In this document: piece after piece, positions 309 through 18,590 of the stretch | Position numbering within the stretch: the stretch's first letter is position 1 | How the letters are laid out: every line of letters begins with the position of its first letter | Source: Candidatus Latescibacterota bacterium | GTDB taxonomy: Bacteria; Latescibacterota; UBA2968; UBA8231 | Assembly: GCA_022827835.1 (NCBI GenBank) | Contig: JAJEIO010000019.1 | Coordinates: forward strand, 1-64,000 | Direction of reading: 5' to 3' | Length of the DNA stretch: 64,000 bases | Notes under the pieces: generated by a model | Seen by the model: the letters and a program-made list of their open reading frames with translations, nothing else | Told to the model about the DNA's origin: nothing | Databases searched by the model: none | Made by a program: the position numbers and the translations under genes

Positions 309-1517
309 TTACGCGAGGTCGATAATCTCCGAGGGCGTGGCATAGCCACCGGGAATGTGAGCAGCGAGCCACTCCGGCGCATCGCGGCGCGGCAGCGACA
401 GGGCTGGCTCGCCCTTGCAGCTCAAGCGGTACAGCAGCCGGGCATCGTCGAGCGAGTTGATATTCGACTTGAGCGGCGGCGAATTGTGCAGGGTCATATA
501 GTTGTCCCACAGCGTCACATCGCCCGACGCGTGCGGGTGGTCGTAGCGGAACTCCGGCTGTAGCACATGCGCTTCGAGCCGGTCGAGAAACGCGCGCGAT
601 GCTTCCGCGGACATCCCTTCCACTTCGATCGCCGGCCGCACCCGTGGCCGCGACGCCCAAATTGGACTGTGCAGGGACTTGATGCCAGAGCGCGGGTTGG
701 TGCGCACCAGCGGAGCGAGCCAGCCCTCGTCGCCCTCGTTCAACCGCCTCCGCAACTGCACTTGCTCCAGAGTCGCCTGCTCTGTCGGCGGCAGCGCCGC
801 AAAGGCCGCGGCCGTGTCGGCAAAGGCCGTTTCGCCGTTCAACGGCAGACACTTGCGGAGTCGCATGAGTTCGCGATCCGAGCCTTCGTAGTACGGATGA
901 GCCTTGCCGTCGTCGAGTGCCTGCACCCAATTCCCGCCAGGGGCATCGCGTGCCACCGGCGACTTGTGGGCGAGGAACATCGAGACGTAGATCGGCAAAC
1001 GCTCGTACTCAATGTCCGTGTGCCACGAGCCGCCTCCAGTCACCCTAGCAGATGGGGCACTGCGCTCCCCCCGAAAGTTGGACACAACCAGCACCGCCGG
1101 CGACTCGTGCGGCAGGCATTGCAGTTGGCCGGGAAAGGCGGCGTTGACCGAGGAGGCCGTGCGACGCTCAAAGGGAATCAATTCAAAGGGACCATCGCTG
1201 TCGCCATCTTGCTGGGCCGGTTTACCCCCGCGCATGAAGTTGTTGGGGTGCGGCACCGGCGCGCCCCAGTGGTTGGCGAAGCGTTCGAAGTGGGCTAGGG
1301 AAAAGGCTTCCAAGTCCTGCCCGGCAATGCTGACGATGCGAAACCGGCTCAGGGCGTCCAGCAGAAAGGCCACCTGCTCAGGATTGAGCGGGCGGCACAG
1401 ATCGATACCGATGAAGCGCCGCCCGGCACCGCTAACGGCCAGCGGCCCCTCGCTGCGGGCGTCCGTACCGAATAACTCGCGCAGCCTTTCATCTAACGAT
1501 TCTGTCTTTTGGCCCAC
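309..1517 (-). CDS. TauD/TfdA-family Fe(II)/2-oxoglutarate dioxygenase
   Basis: This 402-residue protein is a cytoplasmic non-haem iron oxygenase of the taurine dioxygenase fold. The iron triad is visible as H166-x-D168 in the segment SWHTDIEYE and a distal H344 in WDNYMTLHN. R364 in LLYRLS is the likely 2-oxoglutarate anchor. The substrate is unknown. It is longer than TauD (about 280 residues), with additional sequence between the HxD motif and the distal histidine. The start is GTG at 1517, six bases after the stop of the upstream PQQ dehydrogenase, so the two are almost certainly co-transcribed. A role in oxidising or clipping a small organic acid or sulfonate is inference. Confidence 0.8.
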   Translation of the reverse strand: MGQKTESLDERLRELFGTDARSEGPLAVSGAGRRFIGIDLCRPLNPEQVAFLLDALSRFRIVSIAGQDLEAFSLAHFERFANHWGAPVPHPNNFMRGGKPAQQDGDSDGPFELIPFERRTASSVNAAFPGQLQCLPHESPAVLVVSNFRGERSAPSARVTGGGSWHTDIEYERLPIYVSMFLAHKSPVARDAPGGNWVQALDDGKAHPYYEGSDRELMRLRKCLPLNGETAFADTAAAFAALPPTEQATLEQVQLRRRLNEGDEGWLAPLVRTNPRSGIKSLHSPIWASRPRVRPAIEVEGMSAEASRAFLDRLEAHVLQPEFRYDHPHASGDVTLWDNYMTLHNSPPLKSNINSLDDARLLYRLSCKGEPALSLPRRDAPEWLAAHIPGGYATPSEIIDLA

Positions 1518-1523
1518 GATGCT

Positions 1524-4500
1524 TTATCGCCCCCCCCCACGGTTCCTCCGGCGCATCCACGGAGGAGCGGCGCTGGAGTCTGCGTCCGTCTCCCCGGAGG
1601 CGGTCTCATGGTATTCTCTGAGCAACTCTTCGAGAGCCTCAGAGGTATCTATGAAGTTGGCCCACCTATAAGGCGGGACGTCAAAACGCCGATCCCCCAA
1701 CAAGGGGTCAGCACCCCGCGCCAACAGCAACTGGGCTATCTCTAGCTGATCGGCCATGACGGTTTTGTGCAGGGGCGTACTGCCGCGGTCGAACCGGCTA
1801 AATCCACTGGCATACCCGTTGACGTCCGCGCCGCGATCCAGCAAAAATTCCGCCGCTTCCAGCGCGCCGCAATAGGCCGCAAAGTTAAGCGCTTCCACCA
1901 CAATCTGCTCGGCGGTGAGCACGGTATCTGGGTCGGGGTGATATAGATGGCCGATCCCCTCTTTTAGCTGACCTTCAGAGTCGAAGAACTCGGCCATCAG
2001 ATCAACGCGGTTGACCGCGGCGGCAAAGCGCAAATCCACGTCTGCCCCCTCGGCGACCAACATGCTCGCCAACTCTAGATCCCTCTCCCTGAGCGCGTCC
2101 CATAAAATTTGGCCCCGGTTGCGGTTCACATCCACGCCATTGGTCACTAGGAGTTGGATCATTGCGGGTTTGCTCTCGGCCCATTCGAGCTGATCGCTTT
2201 CTATGAACATATCCAGCACGCTGACCGAGTCGTACGTGGCGGCGTTCGGGTCAGCACCTGCCGAGAGCAGGGCCGCGGCTAGTTCAACCGCGTTTTCGGG
2301 CAGCGGTACTCGTTGCGGCTCGCCAGCGAGGTGGTGCAAAAGCGTGGCCCCGCGAAAGTCCGGGTATTCGTAGTACTCGTCGAAATAGCCGCGCGCCGTC
2401 GCTAGCTCGGGGTATTCAGCGAGCAGCTTCTGTAGCGTCTCGCTGTCTCCGGCATCAATGGCCTCTACGGCTTCGTAAAAGGCTTTGTGGTCGGCGTCGC
2501 TGCGGTCGCGTCCTTGGGGCGGCAATTCTTCTCCATCGTGCGGAATGGCCAACGCCACCAGCTCGGGCGGTCGCCCGGAGCTGCCCACTGGCACGACCAC
2601 GTATTGGCGGTCGCCGACCGTATAACTCATCGGCGCGCCGTAGGCATTACTGGGCAATTCGACGCGACCAATCTCCTCGCCCGATACCAAATCGTACGCT
2701 CGCAGATACGCGTCGCGATCGACGAAGTAGTCCCTGCCTGCGTCGGCTAGATCGTGCGGGTCCTCGGAAGTAGCCAACAGGAGATTCGGCGTGGCCAACA
2801 CAAAGGTGCGGTTGTTCCAGCCCATATCTGGCAGGTCAAGGCCCTTGAGCGCCGGGTGATCGACCGGCCCCTTGCCTACCGCAGTCCGCCACAGATGCTC
2901 GCCGCTGTTGAGGTCAATCGCCGTGATGCTGCCGTACGGCGGCTTGACCAGCGGCAGACCGCGCGGGCCGAGGATGTGCCGACCGGCGCTGGCAGAAAAC
3001 GCCGAATAAGCATCTAGGTCGCGCACCGGCCGCAGCTCCACGTTGGTGATAATCATGTGCGACGGCACGTACAGCACGCCCGTGCGCGGATCGGCCGCGC
3101 CGCCCGCCCAGTCAGCACCGCCGACTTGGCCGGGAACCGACAAAACACCCTTCTCCGTCGGCGGCGTGTAGAGCGGACCGTAGTCGTACCGGGCGAGAAT
3201 GGCCTTGGCTTCCTCGCGCAACTCAGGCGTGAAGTCGATCAGATCGTCTTCTGTGAGACCTTGGCGCTCAAAGGCCGCTGGTTTGGTCGGAAACGGCTGC
3301 GTCGGCGAGGTCTTTTCGCCGGACACTTGCGATTGTGGCACCGGCTTTTCCTCAATCGGCCAGATCGGCTCGCCAGTCTCGCGGTCAAAGACAAAGCAAA
3401 AAGCCTGTTTGGTAAGCTGGGCTACTACCTTGCGCGGTTGGCCATCCACGACCACGTCCAACAGCAGAGGGACGGCCGGCGGATCGTAGTCCCACAGGCC
3501 GTGATGGACCAACTGGTAGTGCCACACCCGTTCGCCAGTCTCGGCCTTTAGACACACGACCGACTCGCTGAACAGGTTATCGCCGGGGCGCTCGCCGCCG
3601 TAGTAGTCGTGGCTAGCTGTGCTCACCGGCAGGTAGAAGCTGCCCAGTTCCTCGTCGGCTGTCATCGTCGCCCACACATTGGCCGCGCCATAGGTCTTCC
3701 ACGCATCGTTTTCCCACGTCTCGTTGCCGAATTCGCCCTCCTGCGGGATTGTGTGGAATTCCCACACTTTTTCGCCGGTGCGCGCGTCGAAGGCCTGCAC
3801 ATCGCCCGGGGGCATGTATTCGGGCGGCGGCCTGAAGCGCGCATCCATGATCGCCGAGCCAACGGCGACCACGTCGCGACAGACCACGGGCGGAGCCGTA
3901 ACTCCGTAGCCCCTGCGCTCCTCTTCACTCAGCGGCCGGCGCAGCAAGGCTCCCAAATCGACGCGACCATCTTCGCCAAAGTTGGGGTCGGGCAGGCCGG
4001 TCTTCACGTCTATGGAATACAGATAGGCGGTCGAAGTCGCCAGAAACACCCGCTCGATCTCGCCATCGGTCCAATAGCTCACTCCGCGCGAATTGCCCAC
4101 GAAACCAGAACCGGTCCGCCAAGACTCCGGGTCAAACGCCCACAGTTCCTCGCCGCTTTGGCCGTCAACAGCCGAGAGGACGTTGAATGGAGAGCCGTAG
4201 TAGAGCACGCCATTGACGGCCAGCGGCGTGCCGCGATTGTTGTCGAAGCGAGGACCACCGCGCCGCCAGCCGCCCCGACCGCGCCCCCGCTCCTCGCCTC
4301 GGTTAGCTCTAGCTCTGGCTCTCGCCGCCTCGTAGATCTGCACGTCGCGGGGCCGGTAGCGCCAGACCACGCTCAACTGGTCGAAGTTGTCGCGATTAAT
4401 CTGGTCCGCCGGAGTGTAGCGTTTGCCGCCCTGGTCGCCACCGTAATACGGCCAATCGACATCGTCGGCAAACGCCGAGAGCGAGAGCAACAGCGACAAT

Positions 4501-4535
4501 GCGATCGCTAAGGTCCGGCAGGCGCGTCTATTCAT
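1524..4535 (-). CDS. Periplasmic PQQ-dependent dehydrogenase fused to C-terminal ankyrin repeats (copy 1)
   Basis: This 1003-residue protein starts with a signal peptide (about residues 1-23, ending SAFA). It continues with an eight-bladed quinoprotein propeller of the glucose/alcohol dehydrogenase type. Recognisable propeller segments are DWPYYGGDQGGKRYTPADQIN, the HHGLWDYD segment (equivalent to HHDLWDMD in membrane glucose dehydrogenase), and GGADWAGGAADP. The membrane domain of that enzyme is absent, so the protein should be soluble in the periplasm. From about residue 675 onward there are ankyrin-type repeats, with motifs such as LLSAGADPNAAT, LDRGADVNGY and STPLHKTV, followed by an Arg/Gly-rich tail. 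The start ATG at 4535 has GGAG just upstream. The neighbour at 4707-7637 is a close paralogue. Substrate and electron acceptor are unknown. Confidence 0.85.
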   Translation of the reverse strand: MNRRACRTLAIALSLLLSLSAFADDVDWPYYGGDQGGKRYTPADQINRDNFDQLSVVWRYRPRDVQIYEAARARARANRGEERGRGRGGWRRGGPRFDNNRGTPLAVNGVLYYGSPFNVLSAVDGQSGEELWAFDPESWRTGSGFVGNSRGVSYWTDGEIERVFLATSTAYLYSIDVKTGLPDPNFGEDGRVDLGALLRRPLSEEERRGYGVTAPPVVCRDVVAVGSAIMDARFRPPPEYMPPGDVQAFDARTGEKVWEFHTIPQEGEFGNETWENDAWKTYGAANVWATMTADEELGSFYLPVSTASHDYYGGERPGDNLFSESVVCLKAETGERVWHYQLVHHGLWDYDPPAVPLLLDVVVDGQPRKVVAQLTKQAFCFVFDRETGEPIWPIEEKPVPQSQVSGEKTSPTQPFPTKPAAFERQGLTEDDLIDFTPELREEAKAILARYDYGPLYTPPTEKGVLSVPGQVGGADWAGGAADPRTGVLYVPSHMIITNVELRPVRDLDAYSAFSASAGRHILGPRGLPLVKPPYGSITAIDLNSGEHLWRTAVGKGPVDHPALKGLDLPDMGWNNRTFVLATPNLLLATSEDPHDLADAGRDYFVDRDAYLRAYDLVSGEEIGRVELPSNAYGAPMSYTVGDRQYVVVPVGSSGRPPELVALAIPHDGEELPPQGRDRSDADHKAFYEAVEAIDAGDSETLQKLLAEYPELATARGYFDEYYEYPDFRGATLLHHLAGEPQRVPLPENAVELAAALLSAGADPNAATYDSVSVLDMFIESDQLEWAESKPAMIQLLVTNGVDVNRNRGQILWDALRERDLELASMLVAEGADVDLRFAAAVNRVDLMAEFFDSEGQLKEGIGHLYHPDPDTVLTAEQIVVEALNFAAYCGALEAAEFLLDRGADVNGYASGFSRFDRGSTPLHKTVMADQLEIAQLLLARGADPLLGDRRFDVPPYRWANFIDTSEALEELLREYHETASGETDADSSAAPPWMRRRNRGGGR

Positions 4536-4540
4536 TGGAA

Positions 4541-4597
4541 TTCTCCTTTTTGAGGACTTCGCGCATGGCGTCGTTATCTCGCAGTAGCCCGCCCCAA
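4541..4597 (-). pseudogene. Trace of an ankyrin-protein C-terminus upstream of copy 1
   Basis: Read on the minus strand, these bases encode WGGLLRDNDAMREVLKKENS, and they run into the ribosome-binding site of the PQQ-ankyrin gene. The same position upstream of copy 2 encodes WAGYYENDAVREVLK. The match shows that the duplicated unit included the last residues of an ankyrin gene preceding the dehydrogenase. Nothing upstream of this stretch continues the homology; it is abutted by the 85-bp intergenic repeat. Confidence 0.55.
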
Positions 4598-4680
4598 AAG
4601 TTGCGGGGCACTACAGCTAATTAGACACCCTGTCGCCGCGATTCATTCCCGCGCATGTAGCTGTCGATCCGCTCGACGAG
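4596..4680. repeat. 85-bp dispersed intergenic repeat, copy 1
   Basis: This stretch aligns along nearly its whole length with 13752-13840, sharing blocks such as GCTAATTAGACAC and TCGCCGCGATTCATTCCC. It contains the inverted pair ACAGCT (4613-4618) and AGCTGT (4659-4664). In the second copy these have become ACGGCT and AGCCGT, so pairing is kept by a compensating change. It lies between the end of PQQ-ankyrin copy 2 and the upstream region of copy 1. Confidence 0.6.
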
Positions 4681-4706
4681 ACTGATCTGGTCCGCCAATC
4701 AGTATC

Positions 4707-7637
4707 CTAGCGGGTACCCGCCTTCTCTACGGCGGCCTCATGGTGCTCTTTGAGCAGCTCGTCGAGGGCCTTAGAGGTTTCTAAATAGTAAGTCCACCCA
4801 TAAGGCGTGGTGTCATAGGCCCGGTCTCCCACTAGCGAGTTCGCGCCCCGCGCCAAAAGCAACTGGGCCATTTCTAGCTGGTTGGTCATGACGGTTTTGT
4901 GCAGAGGCGTACTGCCGTGGTCGAAACGGTGAAACTCACCGGCAAAGCCGTCGATATCCGCACCGCGATCCAGCAAGAATTTCGCCGCTTCCAACGCGCC
5001 GCTATAGGCCGCAAAGTTAAGCGCTTCCACCACAATCTGCTCGGCGGTGAGCACGGTGTCTGGATTCGGGTGATAGAGGTGGCCCGTTCCCTCTTTCAAC
5101 TCGCCCCCCGAGTCGAAGAATTCCGCCATCAGATCAACGCGGTTGACCCCAGCGGAAAAGCGCAAATCCACGGGCGCACCCGCCGCAATCAACATGCGAG
5201 CTAGCGCCAAGTCTTCCTCGATAAGCGCGTCCCACAGCGCCCGACCTCGGTTGCGCTCTAAGTCCGCGCCCTCGGCGGCCAAGAACTGAACCATCTCGCC
5301 CTTGCTCCCAGCCCAATCGAGCTGGTCACTGCCTATCACCAAGTCCAGCACGGCGACTGAGTCCAGCGTCGCTGCATTGGGGTCAGCACCTGCTGAGAGT
5401 AGGGCGGCAGCTAATTCAATCGCATTTTCGGGCAGCGGTGCTCGTTGTGGCTCACCAGCTAAGTGGTGCAAGAGCGTGGCCCCGCGAAAGTAAGGATATT
5501 CGTAATACTCGTCGAAATAGCCACGCGCCGTCGCTAGCTCGGGGGACTCGGCGAGCAGCTTCTGGAAAGCCTCGGTGTCGCCAGCATCGATAGCTTTCAC
5601 AGCCTCATAAAAGGCTTTATGGTCGGCATCGCCTCGGTCGCGTCCTTGGGGCGGCAGGTCTTCTCCCTCGTGCGGAATGGCCAAGGCGACCAATTCGGGC
5701 GGGCGACCCGATTCACCTAGATAATAGTTGCCCAGCGATATAACCACGTATTGGCGACCGCCGGCCGTATAGCTCATCGGCGCACCGTAGGCGTTGCTCG
5801 GCAATTCGACGCGGCCAATCTCTTTACCCGACGCTAGCTCGTACGCCCGCAGATACGCATCGCGATCGACGAAGTAATCCTCGCCAGCTTCGGCGAGGCC
5901 ATGCGGGTCCTGCGAAGTGGCTAACAGGAGATTCGGCGTGGCCAAGACAAAGGTGCGGTTGTCCCAGCCCATATCCGGCAAGTCGAGGTTCTTGAGCGCT
6001 GGGTGATCAACCGGCCCCTTGCCCACCGTCGTCCGCCACAGGTGATCGCCGCTATTCAGGTCAATCGCCGTGATGCTGCCGTACGGCGGCTTGACTAGCG
6101 GCAGCCCGTGCGGGCCGAGGACGTGCAATTCGTTGCTAGCAGAAAACGCCGAGTGCGCCTCCGGGTCCTCTACCGGATTCAACCGCACGGTGGTAATGGC
6201 CATGTGCGACGGCACGTAGAGCACGCCCGTGCGCGGATCGGCTGCGCCGCCCGCCCAGTCAGCACCGCCCCATTGGCCGGGAACCGACAAAACACCCTTC
6301 TCCGTCGGCGGCGTGTACAGCGGACCATAATCGTATTCGGCGAGAATGGCCTTGGCTTCCTCGCGCAACTCAGGCGTAAAGTCGATCAAGTCGTCTTCGC
6401 TGATACCCTGGCGCTCAAAGGGAGCCGGCTTGGTCGGAAAGGGCTGCGTCGGCGAGGTTTTTTCGCTGGGCACCTGCGATTGCGGCACCGGCTTTTCCTC
6501 AATCGGCCAAATCGGCTCGCCGGTTACGCGGTCAAAGACAAAACAAAAGGCCTGTTTGGTTAGCTGGGCGACGATCTTGCGAGGTTGGCCATCGACGACC
6601 ACGTCCAACAGTAGGGGAACAGCCGGTGGGTCGTAGTCCCACAAGCCGTGATGGACGAGCTGATAGTGCCACACTCGTTCGCCGGTCTCGGCCTTTAGAC
6701 ACACCACCGACTCGCTGAACAGGTTGTCGCCGGGGCGTTCGCCGCCGTAGTAGTCGTGGCTGGCCGTACTCACCGGCAGGTAGAAGTTGCCCAACTCCTC
6801 ATCGGCCGTCATCGTCGCCCAAACATTGGCCGCGCCGTACTTTTTCCACGCATCGCTTTCCCACGTCTCGTTGCCGTATTCGCCCTCTAAAGGAATCGTG
6901 TGGAATTCCCACACCTTCTCGCCGGTACGCGCGTCAAAGGCCTGCACATCGCCGGGAGGGGTGTACTCGGGCGGCGGCTGGAAGCGCCAGTCGCCCATAG
7001 CCGAGCCAACAGCGACCACGTCGCGGCAGACCACCGGCGGGGACGTGATTCCGTAGTTCCAGCGATCTTCCTCGCTCAGCGGCCGGCGCAGCGAAGCCCC
7101 CAAATCGACGCGCCCGCCCTCGCCGAAGTTCGGGTCGGGCAGGCCAGTCTTGGCGTCTATGGAGTACAAATGGGAAGTCGAAGTCGCCATAAACACCCGC
7201 TCAACCTCGCCATCGGTCCAATAGCTAACTCCGCGCACGTTGCCCAAGAAGCGGAAGTTCACCCGCCAAGCCTCTGGGTCAAAGGTCCACAGTTCCTCGC
7301 CGCTTTGGCCGTCGAGAGCCACGAGAATGTTGAAGGGCGAGGCATAGTAGAGCACGCCGTTGACGGCCAGTGGCGTGCCGCGGTTGTTGTCGAAGTAGAG
7401 ATTGCGTCCCACCGGGTTGGGGCCAGCCGTCTCGTAGATCTGCTGATCGGGGGGGCGGTAGCGCCAGATCACGCGCAACTGATCAAAATTTTCGCGATTG
7501 ATCTGATCCGCCGGAGTATAGCGGGTGCCGCCCTGGTCGGCCCCGTAATACGGCCAATCGACCTCGTCGGCAAATGCCACCGTCGAGGGCAAAAGCGACA
7601 ATAGGATCAACAAGGCGCGGCAGGCGCGTTTATTCAC
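4707..7637 (-). CDS. Periplasmic PQQ-dependent dehydrogenase fused to C-terminal ankyrin repeats (copy 2)
   Basis: This 976-residue paralogue has the same architecture as the gene at 1524-4535: a signal peptide (ending AFA), a PQQ propeller with HHGLWDYD and GADWAGGAADP, then ankyrin repeats from about residue 670. The frame is open upstream to 7748, but the GTG at 7637 is preferred. It is preceded by AGAGGAGAATTCC and immediately gives the hydrophobic signal MNKRACRALLILLSLL, matching copy 1. The C-terminal Arg/Gly tail of copy 1 is missing; copy 2 ends in KEHHEAAVEKAGTR. The two proteins diverge most in the ankyrin part and at the N-terminal loop, which suggests that each may recognise a different partner while keeping the same chemistry. 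That is inference. Confidence 0.85.
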   Translation of the reverse strand: MNKRACRALLILLSLLPSTVAFADEVDWPYYGADQGGTRYTPADQINRENFDQLRVIWRYRPPDQQIYETAGPNPVGRNLYFDNNRGTPLAVNGVLYYASPFNILVALDGQSGEELWTFDPEAWRVNFRFLGNVRGVSYWTDGEVERVFMATSTSHLYSIDAKTGLPDPNFGEGGRVDLGASLRRPLSEEDRWNYGITSPPVVCRDVVAVGSAMGDWRFQPPPEYTPPGDVQAFDARTGEKVWEFHTIPLEGEYGNETWESDAWKKYGAANVWATMTADEELGNFYLPVSTASHDYYGGERPGDNLFSESVVCLKAETGERVWHYQLVHHGLWDYDPPAVPLLLDVVVDGQPRKIVAQLTKQAFCFVFDRVTGEPIWPIEEKPVPQSQVPSEKTSPTQPFPTKPAPFERQGISEDDLIDFTPELREEAKAILAEYDYGPLYTPPTEKGVLSVPGQWGGADWAGGAADPRTGVLYVPSHMAITTVRLNPVEDPEAHSAFSASNELHVLGPHGLPLVKPPYGSITAIDLNSGDHLWRTTVGKGPVDHPALKNLDLPDMGWDNRTFVLATPNLLLATSQDPHGLAEAGEDYFVDRDAYLRAYELASGKEIGRVELPSNAYGAPMSYTAGGRQYVVISLGNYYLGESGRPPELVALAIPHEGEDLPPQGRDRGDADHKAFYEAVKAIDAGDTEAFQKLLAESPELATARGYFDEYYEYPYFRGATLLHHLAGEPQRAPLPENAIELAAALLSAGADPNAATLDSVAVLDLVIGSDQLDWAGSKGEMVQFLAAEGADLERNRGRALWDALIEEDLALARMLIAAGAPVDLRFSAGVNRVDLMAEFFDSGGELKEGTGHLYHPNPDTVLTAEQIVVEALNFAAYSGALEAAKFLLDRGADIDGFAGEFHRFDHGSTPLHKTVMTNQLEMAQLLLARGANSLVGDRAYDTTPYGWTYYLETSKALDELLKEHHEAAVEKAGTR

Positions 7638-7946
7638 TGGAATTCTCCTCTTCCGTATTTGATGCCGCTTTGAGGACTTCGCGCACGGCGTCATTTTCGT
7701 AGTAGCCAGCCCAGTCGTAGGACGTCTCGTCCCAGCGAGCGTCTCCAATTGTCGTATCTGCGCCCTTTTCTAGCAAATAGCGAATCAGCTCGACATCTTC
7801 GGTATCCACGGCCTTGTGCAGGGCCGTGCTGCCCCAGTCCCACTCCCAGAAAAATCCGACTAAAGCGTCGATATTCGCTCGGCGTGCTAACCGGCAGATA
7901 GACAACAGTGTCAACGAGGCCGTTAGTCGCAACGCCCTCGGCAAAT
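7630..7946 (-). pseudogene. Frameshifted ankyrin-repeat remnant
   Basis: On the minus strand, one frame encodes GVATNGLVDTVVYL, overlapping the end of the upstream SDR gene. The neighbouring frame continues with ARRANIDALVGFFWEWDWGS, then STALHKAVDTEDVELIRYLL and GADTTIGD. Joined, this aligns without gaps to the last ankyrin repeats of both PQQ-ankyrin proteins (for example RGSTPLHKTVMADQLEIAQLL). A single frameshift near 7885-7900 therefore splits it, and the dehydrogenase-like portion is absent. The open frame ends in TAA at 7630, overlapping the GTG start of copy 2. This is the only content of the roughly 300-base gap. A short functional protein starting at TTG 7944 cannot be excluded. Confidence 0.6.
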
Positions 7947-8687
7947 TCAGCGGTACTGATCCAAGTTCCCCTTATACTCCAAGCCCAGCACTTCCCGGCC
8001 CCGCGCCGTATTGCAGGTAGTATCGGCTTCGGGCGTGCCGACCACGTGCAATACGTCAAATTTCACTTCGTCCCTTTCCAAGGCCAGTCGGCAGGCTTCG
8101 GCCAAATCGTGGCGGCAGACCAAGCCGTTGCGGACGTTCAATGGTTCCCGATACTTGCCGATCCCCAAGCGCGAATCCACGATGTAGTCGGGCCGCAAGA
8201 CTACGATGGGCAGCCCAAAAGCTTCGTGGATCTGGCGGCACATTTCCTCCTGCAGTCGCTTGCACACCGCGTACAAGCTGCCGTCGGGCCGCCGCACCTC
8301 TGAGGAAAAGAAAATTCCCTCGGGATGCACAGTCTGGCACGAGCCGATGTGTACTACTTTGCGGATACCCTGCTCTTGGGCCACTTGCAGGACATTCCAC
8401 AGACCCTTGAGGTTGATGAGGAAGGGCTTGTCGTCGGTGGGGTCGCCGACGAAGTAAACCGCGGTGTGAATGACGCAATCCACGCCGCTGATAGCTCGCT
8501 CCACCGCGTGGTAATCAGCTATATCGCCGTGGACCACTTCGCCGCCGTTCCAATCGCCGTCTATGTCGCGATACGCCTCCCAAGCTTGGGGGCCGTAGTC
8601 AAAGGCGCGGATGTTGTGCTTACCAGCTAGGTTTTGCAAGACGGCGCGGCCCAGCCAACCGGCGGCACCGAAGACCACTGTTTTCAT
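7947..8687 (-). CDS. NAD(P)-dependent epimerase/dehydratase (extended SDR)
   Basis: This 246-residue protein starts with the Rossmann motif FGAAGWLGR (GxxGxxG). It carries YAVCK as the catalytic YxxxK and CVIHTAVYF as the NB motif region, the pattern of sugar-nucleotide epimerases and related SDRs. It is shorter than GalE-type enzymes (about 330), so the C-terminal substrate domain is reduced. The start is ATG 8687 (MKTVVFGAAG), with AAGGAA upstream; an in-frame extension to 8720 has no support. The SDR at 60143-60895 is a distant relative of similar length. The substrate is unknown; the neighbouring PhyH and sulfatase genes suggest small-molecule or sugar catabolism. Confidence 0.8.
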   Translation of the reverse strand: MKTVVFGAAGWLGRAVLQNLAGKHNIRAFDYGPQAWEAYRDIDGDWNGGEVVHGDIADYHAVERAISGVDCVIHTAVYFVGDPTDDKPFLINLKGLWNVLQVAQEQGIRKVVHIGSCQTVHPEGIFFSSEVRRPDGSLYAVCKRLQEEMCRQIHEAFGLPIVVLRPDYIVDSRLGIGKYREPLNVRNGLVCRHDLAEACRLALERDEVKFDVLHVVGTPEADTTCNTARGREVLGLEYKGNLDQYR

Positions 8688-8725
8688 GGGGGATTCCTTC
8701 CTCGAAATTGCCGATGGCATCGCGT

Positions 8726-8754
8726 TCTGCGTCCATCTGCGTCCATCTGCGGAT
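8726..8754. repeat. CTGCGTCCATCTGCGGAT repeat, copy 1
   Basis: The intergenic space between the PhyH and SDR genes contains two tandem 10-bp units of CTGCGTCCAT followed by CTGCGGAT. Matching sequences recur at 9656-9685 and 33081-33098, always outside genes. Confidence 0.6.
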
Positions 8755-8805
8755 CGTCTGGTGAATGATGTAGGACTCCTATATCACGCCTAAAAGCGCA
8801 GTGAA

Positions 8806-9561
8806 TCACCGCTCCTCATAGCGGTCGGCGCGGCGGCGACCCAATAGCTTTGGGCACAGGAGTCGAAAGTCCTCGGGCATGCGCTCGTACGTCTCTGGCC
8901 ACAGAGGCTGGTGGCCGCCTTCAATCCAATTGTTAAACCAAGGAGGGTAATACGCGATATTCAGTCCTATCCGCACGTCCTCGCTCTGATTGGCCCGGGC
9001 TTGGTGAAAAAGCCCCCCGTGCCACAGCATCACGGAACCAGCGCGGCCTTCCACGGGCTTGATCAATGGGTTATCAGCACCCATATCGGGTGGTGGAGCG
9101 GGCCGCCGCGACCGGTGGCTCATGGGCACGACGCCAGTGGCGCCGTTGGCCTCGGTAAAATCTGTGAGCATCCAAATGGTGTTGATCATCCACGGCACAT
9201 CGGGCACTTGGGCAAACGAACCCGCAGAGTCCGCGTGTAAATGCTGAGCAGGGGCCCCGGGCCACGTGGGCTTGGAGCACGCTTCGACGACGCGGCAGCG
9301 CGGCCCCAAAAAGTGCCGCGCAAGGGCCACGGTATCCGGGTGGAAGGCGCAGTTCCAAACCTCGTCGTCTTGGTTGAGCATACCGAACAAAGTCTGATAG
9401 TACTCGTCGCCCACGACATACTCCTGACAGCGCGGATCGCTGTGCAGCGCCAGACAGCGACGGCCCAAAGCCAAGGCGGCCTCGCGTGGAATGCGATCCT
9501 TTAGCACGCAGTACCCATACGCGTCTAGATGCTCGGCGGCGACTTGCAATTCTTCGTTCAC
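8806..9561 (-). CDS. Phytanoyl-CoA dioxygenase (PhyH) family protein
   Basis: This 251-residue protein has the PhyH-type double-stranded beta-helix iron site: H109-x-D111 in HLHADSAGSF, distal H186 in HGGLFHQARANQ, and R197 in DVRIGLN for 2-oxoglutarate. The start is chosen at GTG 9561 because GGAGGTAG stands a few bases upstream, even though the frame is open to an earlier start at 9609. Members of this family hydroxylate varied small molecules; the true substrate is not predictable. It is preceded by a 95-bp element with inverted ends and followed by a repeat, so the operon is loosely spaced. Confidence 0.85.
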   Translation of the reverse strand: MNEELQVAAEHLDAYGYCVLKDRIPREAALALGRRCLALHSDPRCQEYVVGDEYYQTLFGMLNQDDEVWNCAFHPDTVALARHFLGPRCRVVEACSKPTWPGAPAQHLHADSAGSFAQVPDVPWMINTIWMLTDFTEANGATGVVPMSHRSRRPAPPPDMGADNPLIKPVEGRAGSVMLWHGGLFHQARANQSEDVRIGLNIAYYPPWFNNWIEGGHQPLWPETYERMPEDFRLLCPKLLGRRRADRYEER

Positions 9562-9601
9562 GCTTCTACCTCCACGCCAGCTTGAAATCGTCTCGTCGTC
9601 A

Positions 9602-9696
9602 TATAGCAACCCTGAATGAGTTGGACTTTGAGACGCGACTCCTCTCGTTTCTTATTCTGCGTCCACCTGCGTCCATCTGCGGATAAAATTGCTATA
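9602..9696. repeat. MITE-like element with 8-bp inverted ends, carrying the CTGCGTCC repeat
   Basis: The segment begins with TATAGCAA (9602-9609) and ends with its exact reverse complement TTGCTATA (9689-9696). Within it, 9656-9685 contains CTGCGTCCAC-CTGCGTCCAT-CTGCGGAT, copy 2 of the small dispersed repeat. It lies in the 5' leader of the PhyH gene and after the sulfatase stop. There is no coding capacity. Whether it moves is unknown, as only one copy with these ends is seen. Confidence 0.4.
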
Positions 9697-9708
9697 CGTC
9701 CGCAGATC

Positions 9709-11307
9709 TCACTCTACGACAAAGGTCGCACGGGTCTCTTGGCTCTCTTCGTACCCAATGCGGATCGCCCTGGCCCGCAAGGTGGTCGTCCCAACTTTCA
9801 TGCGCAACGGCTCGGTGTAGAGGTGCCAGTGCGGATCGTCGTCCACGGCGTACGCCATAGAAGCCCCCTGGGTGGCGCAGTGGAGTTGCACCAGCAGCGG
9901 CCCTCGGAATGTACCGCCTTCCAGCGCCGGCTCAGTCCCAAGGCTATCGGCGCAGATGGGCACGCACACCGGCGAGGCCGTCTGCGGCTGTTGGCCATCG
10001 GGATACCACTGTCGCACCATCTCGCTTTCCGCCATGCGACCCATGTCGCCTACTTCTTCCAGCCATTCGTCCAAAGCTCCGCGCAGGCGATCCCGCTCCG
10101 GCTGGTACTGGGGATTGGCCGCCAAGTTGTCGATCTCGTGTGGATCGGCTTCGGTGTCGTACAGCTCTTCGACCGGCCTCGGATAGCGGAACATGGCCGA
10201 TTGCGGCTCGGCCAGCTCGTCGGCCAGGTGCAAGCGCCACATCTCCTGCACAATGGGGTGCCGATTGCGATAGGGGATCCAGGCCAAATAGGGGAGGTCT
10301 GGCCGACAGTTGCGGATGTACTTAAAGCGGCGGTCGCGCACGGCTCGCACCATGTCGTACGCCTCGTCGTGCCGGTCGCGGCTCGCGTATATGTACTCTC
10401 GCGGCGGTTGGGCTTGGCGGCCCAAAAACGCGCGGCCCTGCATGTGGGCGGGCACATCAATCCCCGCGAGCGAGAGCATCGTAGGGCCTAGATCGACAGT
10501 GCTTACCAAGTCCTCGCAGACCTGCCCCGCTTCCATGCCGGGGCCACGGGCGATCAGGGGCACGTGAATGCCTGAGTCGTACGGCCAGCGCTTGCCGCGC
10601 GGCAGCGGGCCGTGATCGCTCCAGTGAAAGACGTACGTATTCTCGGACAAGCCGTCTTCGTCGAGTTGTTGCAGGAGTTGGGCCAGCTCTTGGTCGCTGT
10701 GCGCAATATGCGTGTACATCCGCGCCATGGCTTGGCGCACTACGGGAGTGTCGGGGAAATAGGGCGGCAGCGGGATGGCATCTGGATCGAACTCCGGCTC
10801 AGGGCACTTCTCCGGCCACATGCCGCTTTCGTGGGTGCGCGTGGGGTTGAAGACCGCGAAAAAGGGCTGGGCTGGATCGGGACGGTTGCGCCAGTGGGCG
10901 TGCGGACCGAGCGCGTCCCAAGCGGTCAGCGGGGGAGTAAACTGGTAGTCGGTCTTGGCGTTGTTGGAGCAATAATACCCAGCCGCTCGCAGGTATTCCG
11001 TGAAGCACTTTACGTAGTGCGGCACAACGGCCGAATACGGCGTGGGCATCTCCGGCGTAGCGCGATTGGCGTGCGTCGTGCGCATGTGGTGAGTGCCGAT
11101 CGAGGTCGCGTACATGCCGGTGATAATGGCCGACCGGGCCGGAGCGCAGACGCCGGCCGTGGAGAAGCAGCGCGTCCAGCGGCACCCCTCGGCTGCGAGC
11201 CGGTCCAACGTGGGCGTGCGCGCCACTGGATCGCCGTAGCACCCGTACCGGGGGTTGGTATCCTCAAATGAAATCCACAAGAAATTGGGTTTGCGATCCT
11301 TAGCCAT
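9709..11307 (-). CDS. Sulfatase with C-terminal chitobiase/hexosaminidase-type domain
   Basis: This 532-residue protein belongs to the formylglycine-dependent sulfatases. The recognition motif C54-A-P-A-R58 fits CxPxR. Early metal ligands are in SFEDTNPRYGCYGD, and later conserved segments include FHWSDHGPLPRGKRWPYD and HVPLIARGPG. From about residue 455 there is an extra beta-sandwich (LLVQLHCATQGASMAYAVDD ... TTTLRARAIR), which resembles the chitobiase C-terminal domain. No signal peptide is seen, which is notable since most such enzymes are exported. No formylglycine-generating enzyme is present in the window. It probably removes sulfate from a glycan or small sulfate ester; the substrate is unknown. 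Confidence 0.88.
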   Translation of the reverse strand: MAKDRKPNFLWISFEDTNPRYGCYGDPVARTPTLDRLAAEGCRWTRCFSTAGVCAPARSAIITGMYATSIGTHHMRTTHANRATPEMPTPYSAVVPHYVKCFTEYLRAAGYYCSNNAKTDYQFTPPLTAWDALGPHAHWRNRPDPAQPFFAVFNPTRTHESGMWPEKCPEPEFDPDAIPLPPYFPDTPVVRQAMARMYTHIAHSDQELAQLLQQLDEDGLSENTYVFHWSDHGPLPRGKRWPYDSGIHVPLIARGPGMEAGQVCEDLVSTVDLGPTMLSLAGIDVPAHMQGRAFLGRQAQPPREYIYASRDRHDEAYDMVRAVRDRRFKYIRNCRPDLPYLAWIPYRNRHPIVQEMWRLHLADELAEPQSAMFRYPRPVEELYDTEADPHEIDNLAANPQYQPERDRLRGALDEWLEEVGDMGRMAESEMVRQWYPDGQQPQTASPVCVPICADSLGTEPALEGGTFRGPLLVQLHCATQGASMAYAVDDDPHWHLYTEPLRMKVGTTTLRARAIRIGYEESQETRATFVVE

Positions 11308-16092: not shown

Positions 16093-16519
16093 AAAGACCT
16101 TTCTTTTGCACCGGCATTTGTACGCGCCTTTCCGTTCCATCGCCAAAGCGCAACACCAACTCTACCTCGTCGCCGTCCCGCAGCGGCTGGCGCAGTTCCA
16201 TCAGCATCAAATGGGTACCACCCGGCTTCAGCGCAACCTCTGCGCCTGCTGGAACCTGTAGCTCTTCGACTCGGCGCATCGTCATCCGGTCGTCTTCGTA
16301 TTCCATTACGTGTATCTCGGCTCGCTCGGCAGCTTCGGTTGCCACGGCGACCAATGCGATGGGGTCGCCGCCTCGGTTTTCGATGACCAAGTAACCAGCG
16401 GCCGGGCTGCGCGGCGGCGGCTCGCGGATCCAAGCGTCGCGCACGACGATGGGGTCGCCGGTATGCTCTTGTCCACATCCAACTGCCGCGAGCAACAAAA
16501 ATGCAACGACAATTCTCAC
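16079..16519 (-). CDS. PCuAC-family periplasmic copper chaperone lipoprotein
   Basis: This 146-residue protein binds Cu(I) and passes it to Sco and the oxidase. The His/Met copper motif is visible as H70-V-M72, M79/M81 and H103-L-M105 in THLMLMEL. The start GTG 16519 gives a lipoprotein signal ending AAVGC (C15), with AAGGAAG eight bases upstream; the frame is open up to 16681 but overlaps the methyltransferase gene. It is first in a three-gene operon with SCO1 and the 51-residue protein. PCuAC with Sco is the standard arrangement for assembling the CuA centre. Confidence 0.85.
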   Translation of the reverse strand: MRIVVAFLLLAAVGCGQEHTGDPIVVRDAWIREPPPRSPAAGYLVIENRGGDPIALVAVATEAAERAEIHVMEYEDDRMTMRRVEELQVPAGAEVALKPGGTHLMLMELRQPLRDGDEVELVLRFGDGTERRVQMPVQKKGLYESE

Positions 16520-16550
16520 CGGATGTCTTCCTTCGGTTGGCTGTCGGTCC

Positions 16551-17363
16551 TCAGACCTTGACACCAATAGCGCCAACCATGGGTGGCGATGAAATGCTAG
16601 CTCGCGGATCGCGGGCGTTTGCCTGCCATTCTTCCCAATGCGCGGCGCACTCTTCCTCGCGCAGTACGCCACGCGCCACAAGTTCGGGCAGATACATGCG
16701 CAGGAACTGCTCTATCCAGCGCCAGATGCGATTGCCGGGACGGGCAATACCCCCGATGGGGACGATCTCCACGGCCTCCAAACCACACCGCGCCATTAGC
16801 TCCGGCAGCTTCCCGCCGATATCCAACCTCTCTTCAAAACTCTCATGGACCGCTTGCAACACGCGCCGCAAGTCAGGGTACTCAATCCGGGCGACAAACG
16901 CCCCATAAGCGCAGTAATCCACAACCACTAAGCGACCGCCCGTTTTCAGTACCCGCGCCACCCGCTCTATCACCCCTTGCGGCTCCTCTATGAAGCAAAG
17001 CAACCAGCGGGCGAACGCTGCGTCCATAGAAGCGGCCGGCAGGTCGAGGGTGCGGACATCCGCTACGGCGACCTCGACTTGCTGCAAGCCGACTGACGCA
17101 GCGCGGTGTCGGAGAAAATCCGCGAACTTCGGCGACCCATCAACCGCCAACACGCGCCCCTCTGCTCCCACGCGCTCGGCCAGTTCCAAGCTGGTAAAGC
17201 CCGGTCCGCAACCTAGATCGAGAATCACCTGCCCGGCACTGAAATCGGCACGCTCCCACAAGTCTGCGGTCTCGGGGTGCCACGTGTCGTGCTGCGCTTG
17301 CAGGCGACGCAGTTCCTCGTCGTCGGTCCCCAACATGTAATCGCGTTCGGCAGCGGTGCTCAC
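16551..17363 (-). CDS. Class I SAM-dependent methyltransferase
   Basis: This 270-residue protein has motif I as ILDLGCGPGFTS, motif II-like VLAVDGSP and acidic ARWLLCFIEEP near post II. The fold is the ordinary UbiE/Methyltransf_11 type. The N-terminus MSTAAERDYMLGTDDEELRRL and the tryptophan-rich lead to ADLWERADF are typical of small-molecule methyltransferases. It is 6 bases downstream of the amidohydrolase stop region in the operon order. The substrate is not predictable. Confidence 0.8.
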   Translation of the reverse strand: MSTAAERDYMLGTDDEELRRLQAQHDTWHPETADLWERADFSAGQVILDLGCGPGFTSLELAERVGAEGRVLAVDGSPKFADFLRHRAASVGLQQVEVAVADVRTLDLPAASMDAAFARWLLCFIEEPQGVIERVARVLKTGGRLVVVDYCAYGAFVARIEYPDLRRVLQAVHESFEERLDIGGKLPELMARCGLEAVEIVPIGGIARPGNRIWRWIEQFLRMYLPELVARGVLREEECAAHWEEWQANARDPRASISSPPMVGAIGVKV

Positions 17364-17369
17364 GGGTGC

Positions 17370-18590
17370 TTACTCCGGCGGCAGGACCAAGTACTCACCC
17401 TCGCGGATCCCATAGCTGTCGCCGAGTTCGGGGTAGTCGATCCCCGCGCGGCCATTCCAATCCCAGACCACTTCTCCATCCTTGACCGTCAGCTCGCAAA
17501 ACAGCCGCTGGCGGCCGTCCAACCGACCGTCGAACGAATCGGCGTAGCCAAAATTCCCCTCCATCAGCTTCAAGACCGCCACATCGGCTACAGCACCCAC
17601 CGACAGATGCCCCAACTCCGGGTGGCCAATCTCCCGCGCCGGGTTGATGGTTGAGGCGCGTATGACCTCGCCGAGCGGCATACCCATCACCAGAAATTTC
17701 GACATGGTAGTAGCCATGTCGAGCATACCCATGTTCATGCAGAGGACGTGCAGGTCGGTCGAAATCGAGTCTGGATAGAAGCCTTGGGCGATGGCTGGGA
17801 CCGCGTTGCGAAAACAGAAACTGCCGCCACCGTGTCCCACATCCAAGATGACGCCTCGTGCCCGCGCCTCGTGCAGATAGGGCAGCACCTTGCCCTCGGC
17901 GTCAAACCACGGCGTCGGACCGCGGAAGATGTGGGTGCTTATGTCGCCTGGGCGCAGTTTTTCGCCCAAGAGTTGGTAGTAGGGCCGTTCCTTTCTGAAG
18001 TAGCCAAAGTCGATCATCACCCGCGTCGCGGCTTTTTCGGCGGCCGCGAGCGCGCGATCGACCGAAATCCATTCGGGGCCTTTGTAGTGCGCCGTCTTGA
18101 TGCCTACTACTACGTCCTCGTTTTCCCGCGCCACGCCCGCTGTCTTGTTGGGATCCATGTCGTACGGATTCTGCTCGTGGTCGATTGAAGTCATCCCGGT
18201 CCCGGCAATATTGACCAACGCGAAGAGCCGCGTCTGACAGCGGTCGATGACCCGATAGCGAAAATCCTCAAAGTTGCGCCAGCCCGCACTCCCAGTATCC
18301 ACCAGCGTCGTCACGCCAGTGCGAAAACTAAAGCCGTCGGGCAAGATGCTGTTGTCGCCGGCCCACGTATCGCGGTGACCGGCCGTGGCATAGGCGTGGA
18401 TGTGAATATCTACCAGCCCCGGCGTCACGTAGAGTCCGCTCACGTCGATGACCTGCCCGGCACCCTCCGTCGGCAGGTCCGTATCTACGGCCGCAATTAC
18501 CTTCCCTGTGATGCCGATGTCCTTGGGCGCGTCAATGCCGTTTTGGGGGTCGATCAAATGACCGCCCTTGAGTACGAGATCAAACTGCAT
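17370..18590 (-). CDS. Amidohydrolase (dihydroorotase/deacetylase-like metallohydrolase)
   Basis: This 406-residue enzyme belongs to the amidohydrolase superfamily. The HxH metal motif appears in GLVDIHIHAYA, near residue 65. Later conserved parts include ISTDLHVLCMNMG (an Asp of the active site) and VGAVADVAVLKL, which is the small beta-sandwich domain. The pattern is that of the amidohydrolase/deacetylase family related to EF_0837. The start is ATG 18590. It runs toward the methyltransferase gene with a 6-base gap, so the two may share a transcript. A cyclic amide or N-acyl amino acid substrate is likely but not shown. Confidence 0.75.
   Translation of the reverse strand: MQFDLVLKGGHLIDPQNGIDAPKDIGITGKVIAAVDTDLPTEGAGQVIDVSGLYVTPGLVDIHIHAYATAGHRDTWAGDNSILPDGFSFRTGVTTLVDTGSAGWRNFEDFRYRVIDRCQTRLFALVNIAGTGMTSIDHEQNPYDMDPNKTAGVARENEDVVVGIKTAHYKGPEWISVDRALAAAEKAATRVMIDFGYFRKERPYYQLLGEKLRPGDISTHIFRGPTPWFDAEGKVLPYLHEARARGVILDVGHGGGSFCFRNAVPAIAQGFYPDSISTDLHVLCMNMGMLDMATTMSKFLVMGMPLGEVIRASTINPAREIGHPELGHLSVGAVADVAVLKLMEGNFGYADSFDGRLDGRQRLFCELTVKDGEVVWDWNGRAGIDYPELGDSYGIREGEYLVLPPE

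What the first reader, a model, noticed from the sequence alone, without database searches (positions are those of the whole stretch)
1524..7637. Tandem duplicated PQQ dehydrogenase-ankyrin fusions linked to a TauD dioxygenase
Two adjacent genes each join a signal peptide, a complete PQQ propeller (HHGLWDYD, GADWAGGAADP) and a C-terminal ankyrin array. A TauD dioxygenase starts six bases after the downstream copy. I do not know of a described role for ankyrin repeats attached to a periplasmic quinoprotein. They may dock an electron carrier or a surface partner, and the two copies differ most in the ankyrin half. The architecture is seen directly; the function is inference.
Basis: partly seen in the sequence, partly recalled or inferred. 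Interest (0 to 1): 0.6.

Follow-up and report, generated by a model that had tools for sequence, protein, structure and literature searches.

The report
Tandem quinoprotein dehydrogenases with ankyrin tails
Two neighbouring genes in an uncultured, probably sponge-dwelling bacterium encode exported sugar- or alcohol-oxidising enzymes with an ankyrin protein-docking tail, a single-origin fusion family I found no description of, in bacteria that cannot make the enzymes' cofactor PQQ but carry an importer for it.

Summary
Window 1524-4535(-) and 4707-7637(-) each encode a signal peptide, a complete PQQ propeller (PF01011, E about 1e-182) and a C-terminal ankyrin array (about eight helical repeats in a confident AlphaFold2 model). 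TauD starts 6 bases after the downstream copy. A third tandem copy once lay upstream: only a relic (7640-7903) remains here, while relatives keep it intact.

The fusion recurs in 13 genomes of four genera of this bacterial family. Trees of both halves agree on one ancient fusion, vertically inherited, with one later loss of the tail. TauD linkage is limited to this tandem locus within the genus. Catalytic D, K, W and R are kept in both window copies; side branches have D to N. Both halves are under purifying selection.

The lineage lacks pqqC and pqqE but carries PqqU, the TonB-dependent PQQ importer (published signature in 16/16). In one relative pqqU is divergently adjacent to a fusion gene, followed by a pentahaem cytochrome c. 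Two relatives extend the fusion with a gluconolactonase domain.

Best reading: an exported, PQQ-scavenging, glucose-dehydrogenase-type enzyme whose ankyrin tail docks a redox or pathway partner. The docking role is inferred. New variant of a known kind.

The parts
1524..4535 (-). PA1: signal peptide + PQQ propeller (about 23-665) + linker + ankyrin module (about 684-983), 1003 aa
   Evidence: AlphaFold2 model mean pLDDT 88.8, pTM 0.87
4707..7637 (-). PA2: tandem paralogue of PA1, 82% identical, 976 aa, GTG start
7640..7903 (-). relic of a third tandem fusion gene (PA3): a 9-codon piece equal to PA3 residues 274-282, then residues 876-961 (77% identical to G001 PA3); the rest deleted
   Evidence: full-length PA3 in G001, G007 and G009, cut by a contig end in G002
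309..1517 (-). TauD/TfdA-family 2-oxoglutarate dioxygenase, six bases after the PA1 stop; probably same operon
   Evidence: PF02668 E 2e-28; order kept in G001, G002, G004, G007, G010
7947..8720 (-). SDR/NAD-dependent epimerase family gene upstream of the tandem array
   Evidence: PF01370 E 2e-21; conserved position
8806..9609 (-). PhyH-family dioxygenase, conserved neighbour
   Evidence: PF05721 E 1e-23
9709..11307 (-). sulfatase, conserved neighbour
   Evidence: PF00884 E 2e-35

Best explanation
PA1 and PA2 are exported (periplasmic) PQQ-dependent dehydrogenases of the membrane-glucose-dehydrogenase sequence type, without its membrane anchor, that carry a C-terminal ankyrin module as a docking domain. 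The bacterium cannot make PQQ; it imports PQQ made by other organisms through PqqU and loads it on the apo-enzyme in the periplasm. The enzyme most likely oxidises an aldose or a related alcohol to a lactone or aldehyde. The ankyrin module sits where quinohaemoprotein alcohol dehydrogenases have their cytochrome c domain, and most likely holds a partner (haem protein or lactonase) next to the propeller. SHOWN: architecture, signal peptide, conserved catalytic residues, single origin of the fusion, purifying selection on both halves, no pqqC/pqqE found, presence of PqqU with its signature, and a pqqU/fusion/pentahaem-cytochrome cluster in one relative. INFERRED: PQQ use, substrate class, partner identity and the docking role.
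For: Domains. Confident model of the whole chain; closest folds are quinohaemoprotein ADHs 1kb0, 8gy2, 1yiq. E. coli Gcd D466, K493, W404, R266, D354 kept in PA1 and PA2. pqqC absent in all 11 fusion-family genomes tested, including single-contig G004 and G007, while three controls ring at E about 1e-107; no pqqE over cut-off. PqqU homologue in G000 and 9 of the 10 other genus members with F99, R304, R365, K274, Q84 kept in 16/16 (signature from PMC12124388, which reports PqqU without PQQ synthesis in Latescibacterota). G017: pqqU, PQQ-Ank fusion and pentahaem cytochrome c + TPR are contiguous. G017 and G012: PQQ-Ank-gluconolactonase tri-domain proteins (PF08450 E 1.9e-42 in G017). Matching trees of both halves. 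dN/dS below about 0.3 in nearly all within-genus comparisons of propeller and ankyrin parts.
Against: No cytochrome c in the 64 kb window. H262, N355 and N607 of E. coli Gcd are not kept (the N607 alignment is unsure). The score is well below the TIGR03074 cut-off (387 against 832), so the substrate class is not fixed by family. The lactonase-fused relatives have D466 changed to N, which weakens the aldose-plus-lactonase argument. No partner of the ankyrin module is identified. PqqU identity is only about 32%, its R536 is not kept, and R304 aligns beside a gap.
Confidence: 0.55

Rival explanations
1. The propeller no longer uses PQQ: it is an 'empty' quinoprotein kept as a binding scaffold, in an organism without PQQ synthesis.
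For: No pqqC or pqqE in the lineage. Six of 55 aligned propellers have the catalytic D466 changed to N, all within this lineage. A model named 'acido-empty-quinoprotein' (TIGR04528) matches at E 5e-66.
Against: Window copies keep D466, K493, W404, R266, D354; TIGR03074 scores higher than TIGR04528 (387 against 223 bits) and TIGR04528 is far under its cut-off of 650. PqqU with its signature is present and sits beside a D-type fusion gene in G017.
Confidence: 0.15
2. The ankyrin tail is a host-facing eukaryote-like module: the protein is secreted or surface-exposed and binds sponge proteins (as ankyrin proteins of sponge symbionts are reported to alter phagocytosis), with the propeller as enzyme or carrier.
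For: Close relatives are MAGs probably from sponges; ankyrin proteins are enriched in sponge symbionts and have been linked to evasion of phagocytosis (PMC8163846). Exported proteins. Weaker constraint on the ankyrin half.
Against: The ankyrin module's relatives in the same class are leaderless stand-alone proteins and ECF sigma-factor fusions, i.e. cytoplasmic. The signal peptide is ordinary Sec-type and no surface-sorting domain was seen. Fusion genes of relatives sit beside enzymes, cytochromes and pqqU. No sign of positive selection.
Confidence: 0.12
3. The ankyrin module is only a structural extension (stabilising or spacing) without a specific partner.
For: No partner is conserved next to all fusion genes; one sub-branch lost the module and kept the propeller.
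Against: Conserved over the whole family at dN/dS about 0.1-0.3; the same module is used in other protein contexts.
Confidence: 0.15

Closest known systems
Membrane-bound PQQ glucose dehydrogenase (E. coli Gcd; TIGR03074, PF01011)
   Same: Propeller with HHxLWDxD motif; D466, K493, W404, R266, D354 kept; PQQ-auxotrophic host with PqqU, as in E. coli
   Different: No N-terminal membrane domain but a Sec signal peptide; C-terminal ankyrin module; H262, N355, N607 not kept; below the TIGR03074 cut-off
Quinohaemoprotein alcohol dehydrogenases (1kb0, 1yiq, 1kv9, 8gy2)
   Same: PQQ propeller with an extra C-terminal domain; best fold matches
   Different: The C-terminal domain is ankyrin, not cytochrome c; no CxxCH
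Acido-empty-quinoprotein group A (TIGR04528)
   Same: PQQ-like propeller in an organism without PQQ synthesis
   Different: Far below the cut-off; catalytic residues kept; PQQ importer present
Ankyrin proteins of sponge symbionts
   Same: Ankyrin repeats in probably sponge-associated bacteria
   Different: Here fused to a redox enzyme with a signal peptide; no evidence of host targeting
ECF sigma factor-ankyrin fusions of the same class (L149, L150)
   Same: Homologous ankyrin module (GATLLH..AG.P...P.P.N; DLR.AA)
   Different: Cytoplasmic regulator in place of a periplasmic enzyme

Membership tests
PQQ-dependent dehydrogenase superfamily | Full-length PF01011 propeller | tested here: met
   E 9e-182 and 4e-185, profile 1-595 of 595
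PQQ-dependent dehydrogenase superfamily | Catalytic Asp, Lys, PQQ-stacking Trp, Arg | tested here: met
   Gcd D466, K493, W404, R266 kept in PA1 and PA2; their roles are from general knowledge
PQQ-dependent dehydrogenase superfamily | PQQ binding and dye-linked dehydrogenase activity | not testable with these tools
   needs purified protein
Glucose/quinate/shikimate membrane PQQ dehydrogenase (TIGR03074) | Score over the curated cut-off | tested here: not met
   387.5 and 389.3 bits against 832.65
Glucose/quinate/shikimate membrane PQQ dehydrogenase (TIGR03074) | N-terminal membrane domain | tested here: not met
   only a signal peptide precedes the propeller
Glucose/quinate/shikimate membrane PQQ dehydrogenase (TIGR03074) | H262 and N607 of the PQQ site | tested here: not met
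   V/L and P at these columns; alignment near N607 is unsure
Quinohaemoprotein alcohol dehydrogenase | C-terminal cytochrome c domain (CxxCH) | tested here: not met
   no CxxCH in any ORF of 80 aa or more in the window
Acido-empty quinoprotein (TIGR04528) | Score over the curated cut-off | tested here: not met
   223 and 220 bits against 650
Ankyrin repeat proteins | Ank profiles over gathering score and helix-turn-helix repeats | tested here: met
   PF00023 53.3 bits (cut-off 21.1) and others; paired helices 686-981 in the model
TauD/TfdA dioxygenase | PF02668 domain with HxD...H...R | tested here: met
   E 2e-28; WHTD, TLHNSP and YRLS read in the sequence
PqqU importer (in the genome, G000:C45) | Y/F/W99, R304, R365 | tested here: met
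   F, R, R in 16/16 homologues; signature from PMC12124388
Host-directed ankyrin effector | Export beyond the periplasm and effect on host cells | not testable with these tools
   only a Sec-type signal peptide is seen

The most novel reading that the evidence does not exclude
A lineage of probably sponge-associated bacteria evolved once a periplasmic quinoprotein in which an ankyrin docking module replaces the built-in cytochrome or membrane anchor, runs it on PQQ scavenged from the community through PqqU, and plugs the module into different partners (pentahaem cytochrome with TPR, fused lactonase).
Probability: 0.3. Interest if true: 0.68.

Novelty: new variant of a known kind. Interest (0 to 1): 0.5.

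Why it matters
Each half is a known family, but the combination is not described in the papers I could search. It would show how a periplasmic dehydrogenase can be wired to its electron acceptor or next enzyme by a protein-interaction repeat. It also ties a probable sponge symbiont's carbon oxidation to a cofactor it must obtain from others, which can be tested as PQQ cross-feeding.

Tried and rejected
(1) Chance or assembly artefact: rejected; 25 fusion proteins in 13 genomes, including the single-contig G004 and G007. (2) Fusion beside TauD as a general rule: rejected; no TauD in the flanks of other-genus or dispersed copies. (3) Diversifying selection on the ankyrin half: not supported. (4) Fusion outside the family: none among the other 22 genomes of the class, the rest of the phylum set (64 genomes), 16 genomes of the phylum of G175, or the best 80 named loci beyond this lineage; PQQ-only there. 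(5) Cytochrome c partner in the window: none. (6) Papers: nothing found on a PQQ-ankyrin fusion (open-licence papers only). (8) The apparent ankyrin-only gene in G012:C108 was first taken as an independent secreted ankyrin protein; its sequence shows a decayed fusion (internal deletions and an altered end).

Full report
OBSERVATION. Two minus-strand genes, PA1 (1524-4535, 1003 aa) and PA2 (4707-7637, 976 aa, GTG start), each carry a Sec signal peptide, a full PF01011 propeller (E 9e-182 and 4e-185) and ankyrin repeats above gathering scores. TauD (309-1517) starts six bases after the PA1 stop. The window is the start of contig C60 of a 5.84 Mb, 64-contig genome. An AlphaFold2 model of PA1 on a 60-row alignment has mean pLDDT 88.8 and pTM 0.87, with strands throughout the propeller and paired helices from 686 to 981, which I read as eight ankyrin-like repeats. 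The best solved folds are quinohaemoprotein alcohol dehydrogenases, in which, from general knowledge, a cytochrome c domain takes the C-terminal place.

A LOST THIRD COPY. In G001, G002, G007 and G009 a third, more divergent fusion gene (PA3, about 54% identical to PA1) lies upstream of PA2. In the window it is a relic: the sequence after the SDR gene jumps to codons for PA3 residues 274-282 and then to 876-961. In G010 PA3 is absent, and in G004 a 1390-aa gene lies in its place. The order TauD-PA1-PA2-(PA3)-SDR-PhyH-sulfatase is otherwise kept where the contigs reach; in G002 and G004 PA2 and PA1 overlap by 8 bases, in line with one operon.

DISTRIBUTION AND ORIGIN. This genome also has a dispersed fusion copy (C42, 76% identical) and three propeller-only paralogues (C38, C27, C60:117 kb). 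Fusions occur in the window's genus (g1, with a divergent type in G005) and in genera g3, g5 and g6 of the same family, 13 genomes in all. None were found in the other families of the class, the rest of the phylum set or the phylum of G175. A sponge origin is inferred from these isolate codes and the literature on such MAGs (PMC8163846, PMC12993501), not verified. The tree of propellers puts all 25 fusions in one supported clade that also holds a propeller-only branch (C38/C27 type). The tree of ankyrin halves puts the same 25 together (100/96), apart from ECF-sigma-fused and stand-alone relatives, with the same well-supported subgroups. The simplest history is one fusion, vertical descent, duplication, and one loss of the tail.

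SELECTION. PA1 against PA2 in the window: dN/dS 0.22, 0.07 and 0.18 for three propeller parts and 0.20 for the ankyrin part. Lower identity in the ankyrin half reflects weaker constraint. G007's two copies have lower dS (0.13 in the core) than between-species comparisons, suggesting gene conversion there. These are simple pairwise Nei-Gojobori estimates.

IS IT A WORKING QUINOPROTEIN? Aligned to E. coli Gcd, PA1 and PA2 keep D466, K493, W404, R266 and D354; T424 is S; H262, N355 and N607 differ. Over 55 propellers K493 is invariant and D466 is D in 49; the six with N are all from this lineage, namely the lactonase-fused branch and its sisters plus the C38 type. No pqqC is found in the 11 fusion-family genomes tested while three positive controls ring; pqqE gives only sub-threshold radical-SAM hits. 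A PqqU homologue is present in G000 and 9 of its 10 genus relatives searched, and 16 of 16 aligned homologues keep the published signature F/Y99, R304, R365 together with K274 and Q84. PMC12124388 reports PqqU without PQQ synthesis in Latescibacterota. So PQQ use by scavenging is the better reading; PQQ-free use remains possible, most of all for the D-to-N branches.

PARTNERS. In G017 the fusion gene at C29 is flanked by a divergent pqqU, and by a pentahaem cytochrome c with TPR repeats 49 bp downstream, then an FG-GAP/ASPIC protein. G012 has the same block with a decayed fusion gene. G017 C44 and G012 C29 encode PQQ-Ank-SGL tri-domain proteins; the SGL (gluconolactonase-like) domain scores E 1.9e-42 in G017, and the G012 protein has the same length and C-terminus. 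G017 C44 is followed by a PIG-L deacetylase, a monohaem c-type protein and a dihaem protein. In G005 a monohaem c + TPR protein is three genes on, and the fusion has a lipoprotein-type signal. No CxxCH protein lies in the window. The links to cytochrome and lactonase are therefore from relatives, and the lactonase-fused propellers have D466N.

MECHANISM. Exported apo-enzyme, PQQ imported by PqqU, oxidation of an aldose or related alcohol, electrons to a haem protein or quinone, ankyrin module as docking surface. The first steps rest on the evidence above; substrate and docking are inference. The TauD, PhyH, SDR and sulfatase neighbours suggest breakdown of modified, perhaps sulfated, sugars, but this is untested.

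VERDICT. Real, conserved, apparently undescribed domain combination; a new variant of PQQ dehydrogenases, not a new kind of system.

Noticed in passing
window 7640-7903 (-): Relic of a third tandem PQQ-ankyrin gene with two deletions; intact in related genomes.
   Followed up: yes
L139:3304-7062 (-), L140:2711-6469 (-): Tri-domain PQQ-ankyrin-gluconolactonase proteins of 1252 aa, with the catalytic Asp of the propeller changed to Asn.
   Followed up: partly
L215:6423-14541: pqqU homologue divergent from a PQQ-ankyrin gene, with a pentahaem cytochrome c + TPR gene next downstream; candidate PQQ-uptake and oxidation cluster.
   Followed up: partly
L149:3753-5678, L150:3639-5435: ECF sigma factors with the homologous ankyrin module at the C-terminus.
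   Followed up: partly
G000:C20 about 5460-10199, C11 about 16366-18141, C24: Other long ankyrin genes in the genome, including two adjacent ones of about 1000 aa on C20.
   Followed up: no
L137:9586-13758 (-): In G004 a 1390-aa exported protein gene lies where other genomes have PA3.
   Followed up: no
L213:5936-6769 (-): Decayed PQQ-ankyrin gene: most of the propeller deleted in frame, signal peptide and part of the ankyrin module left.
   Followed up: yes
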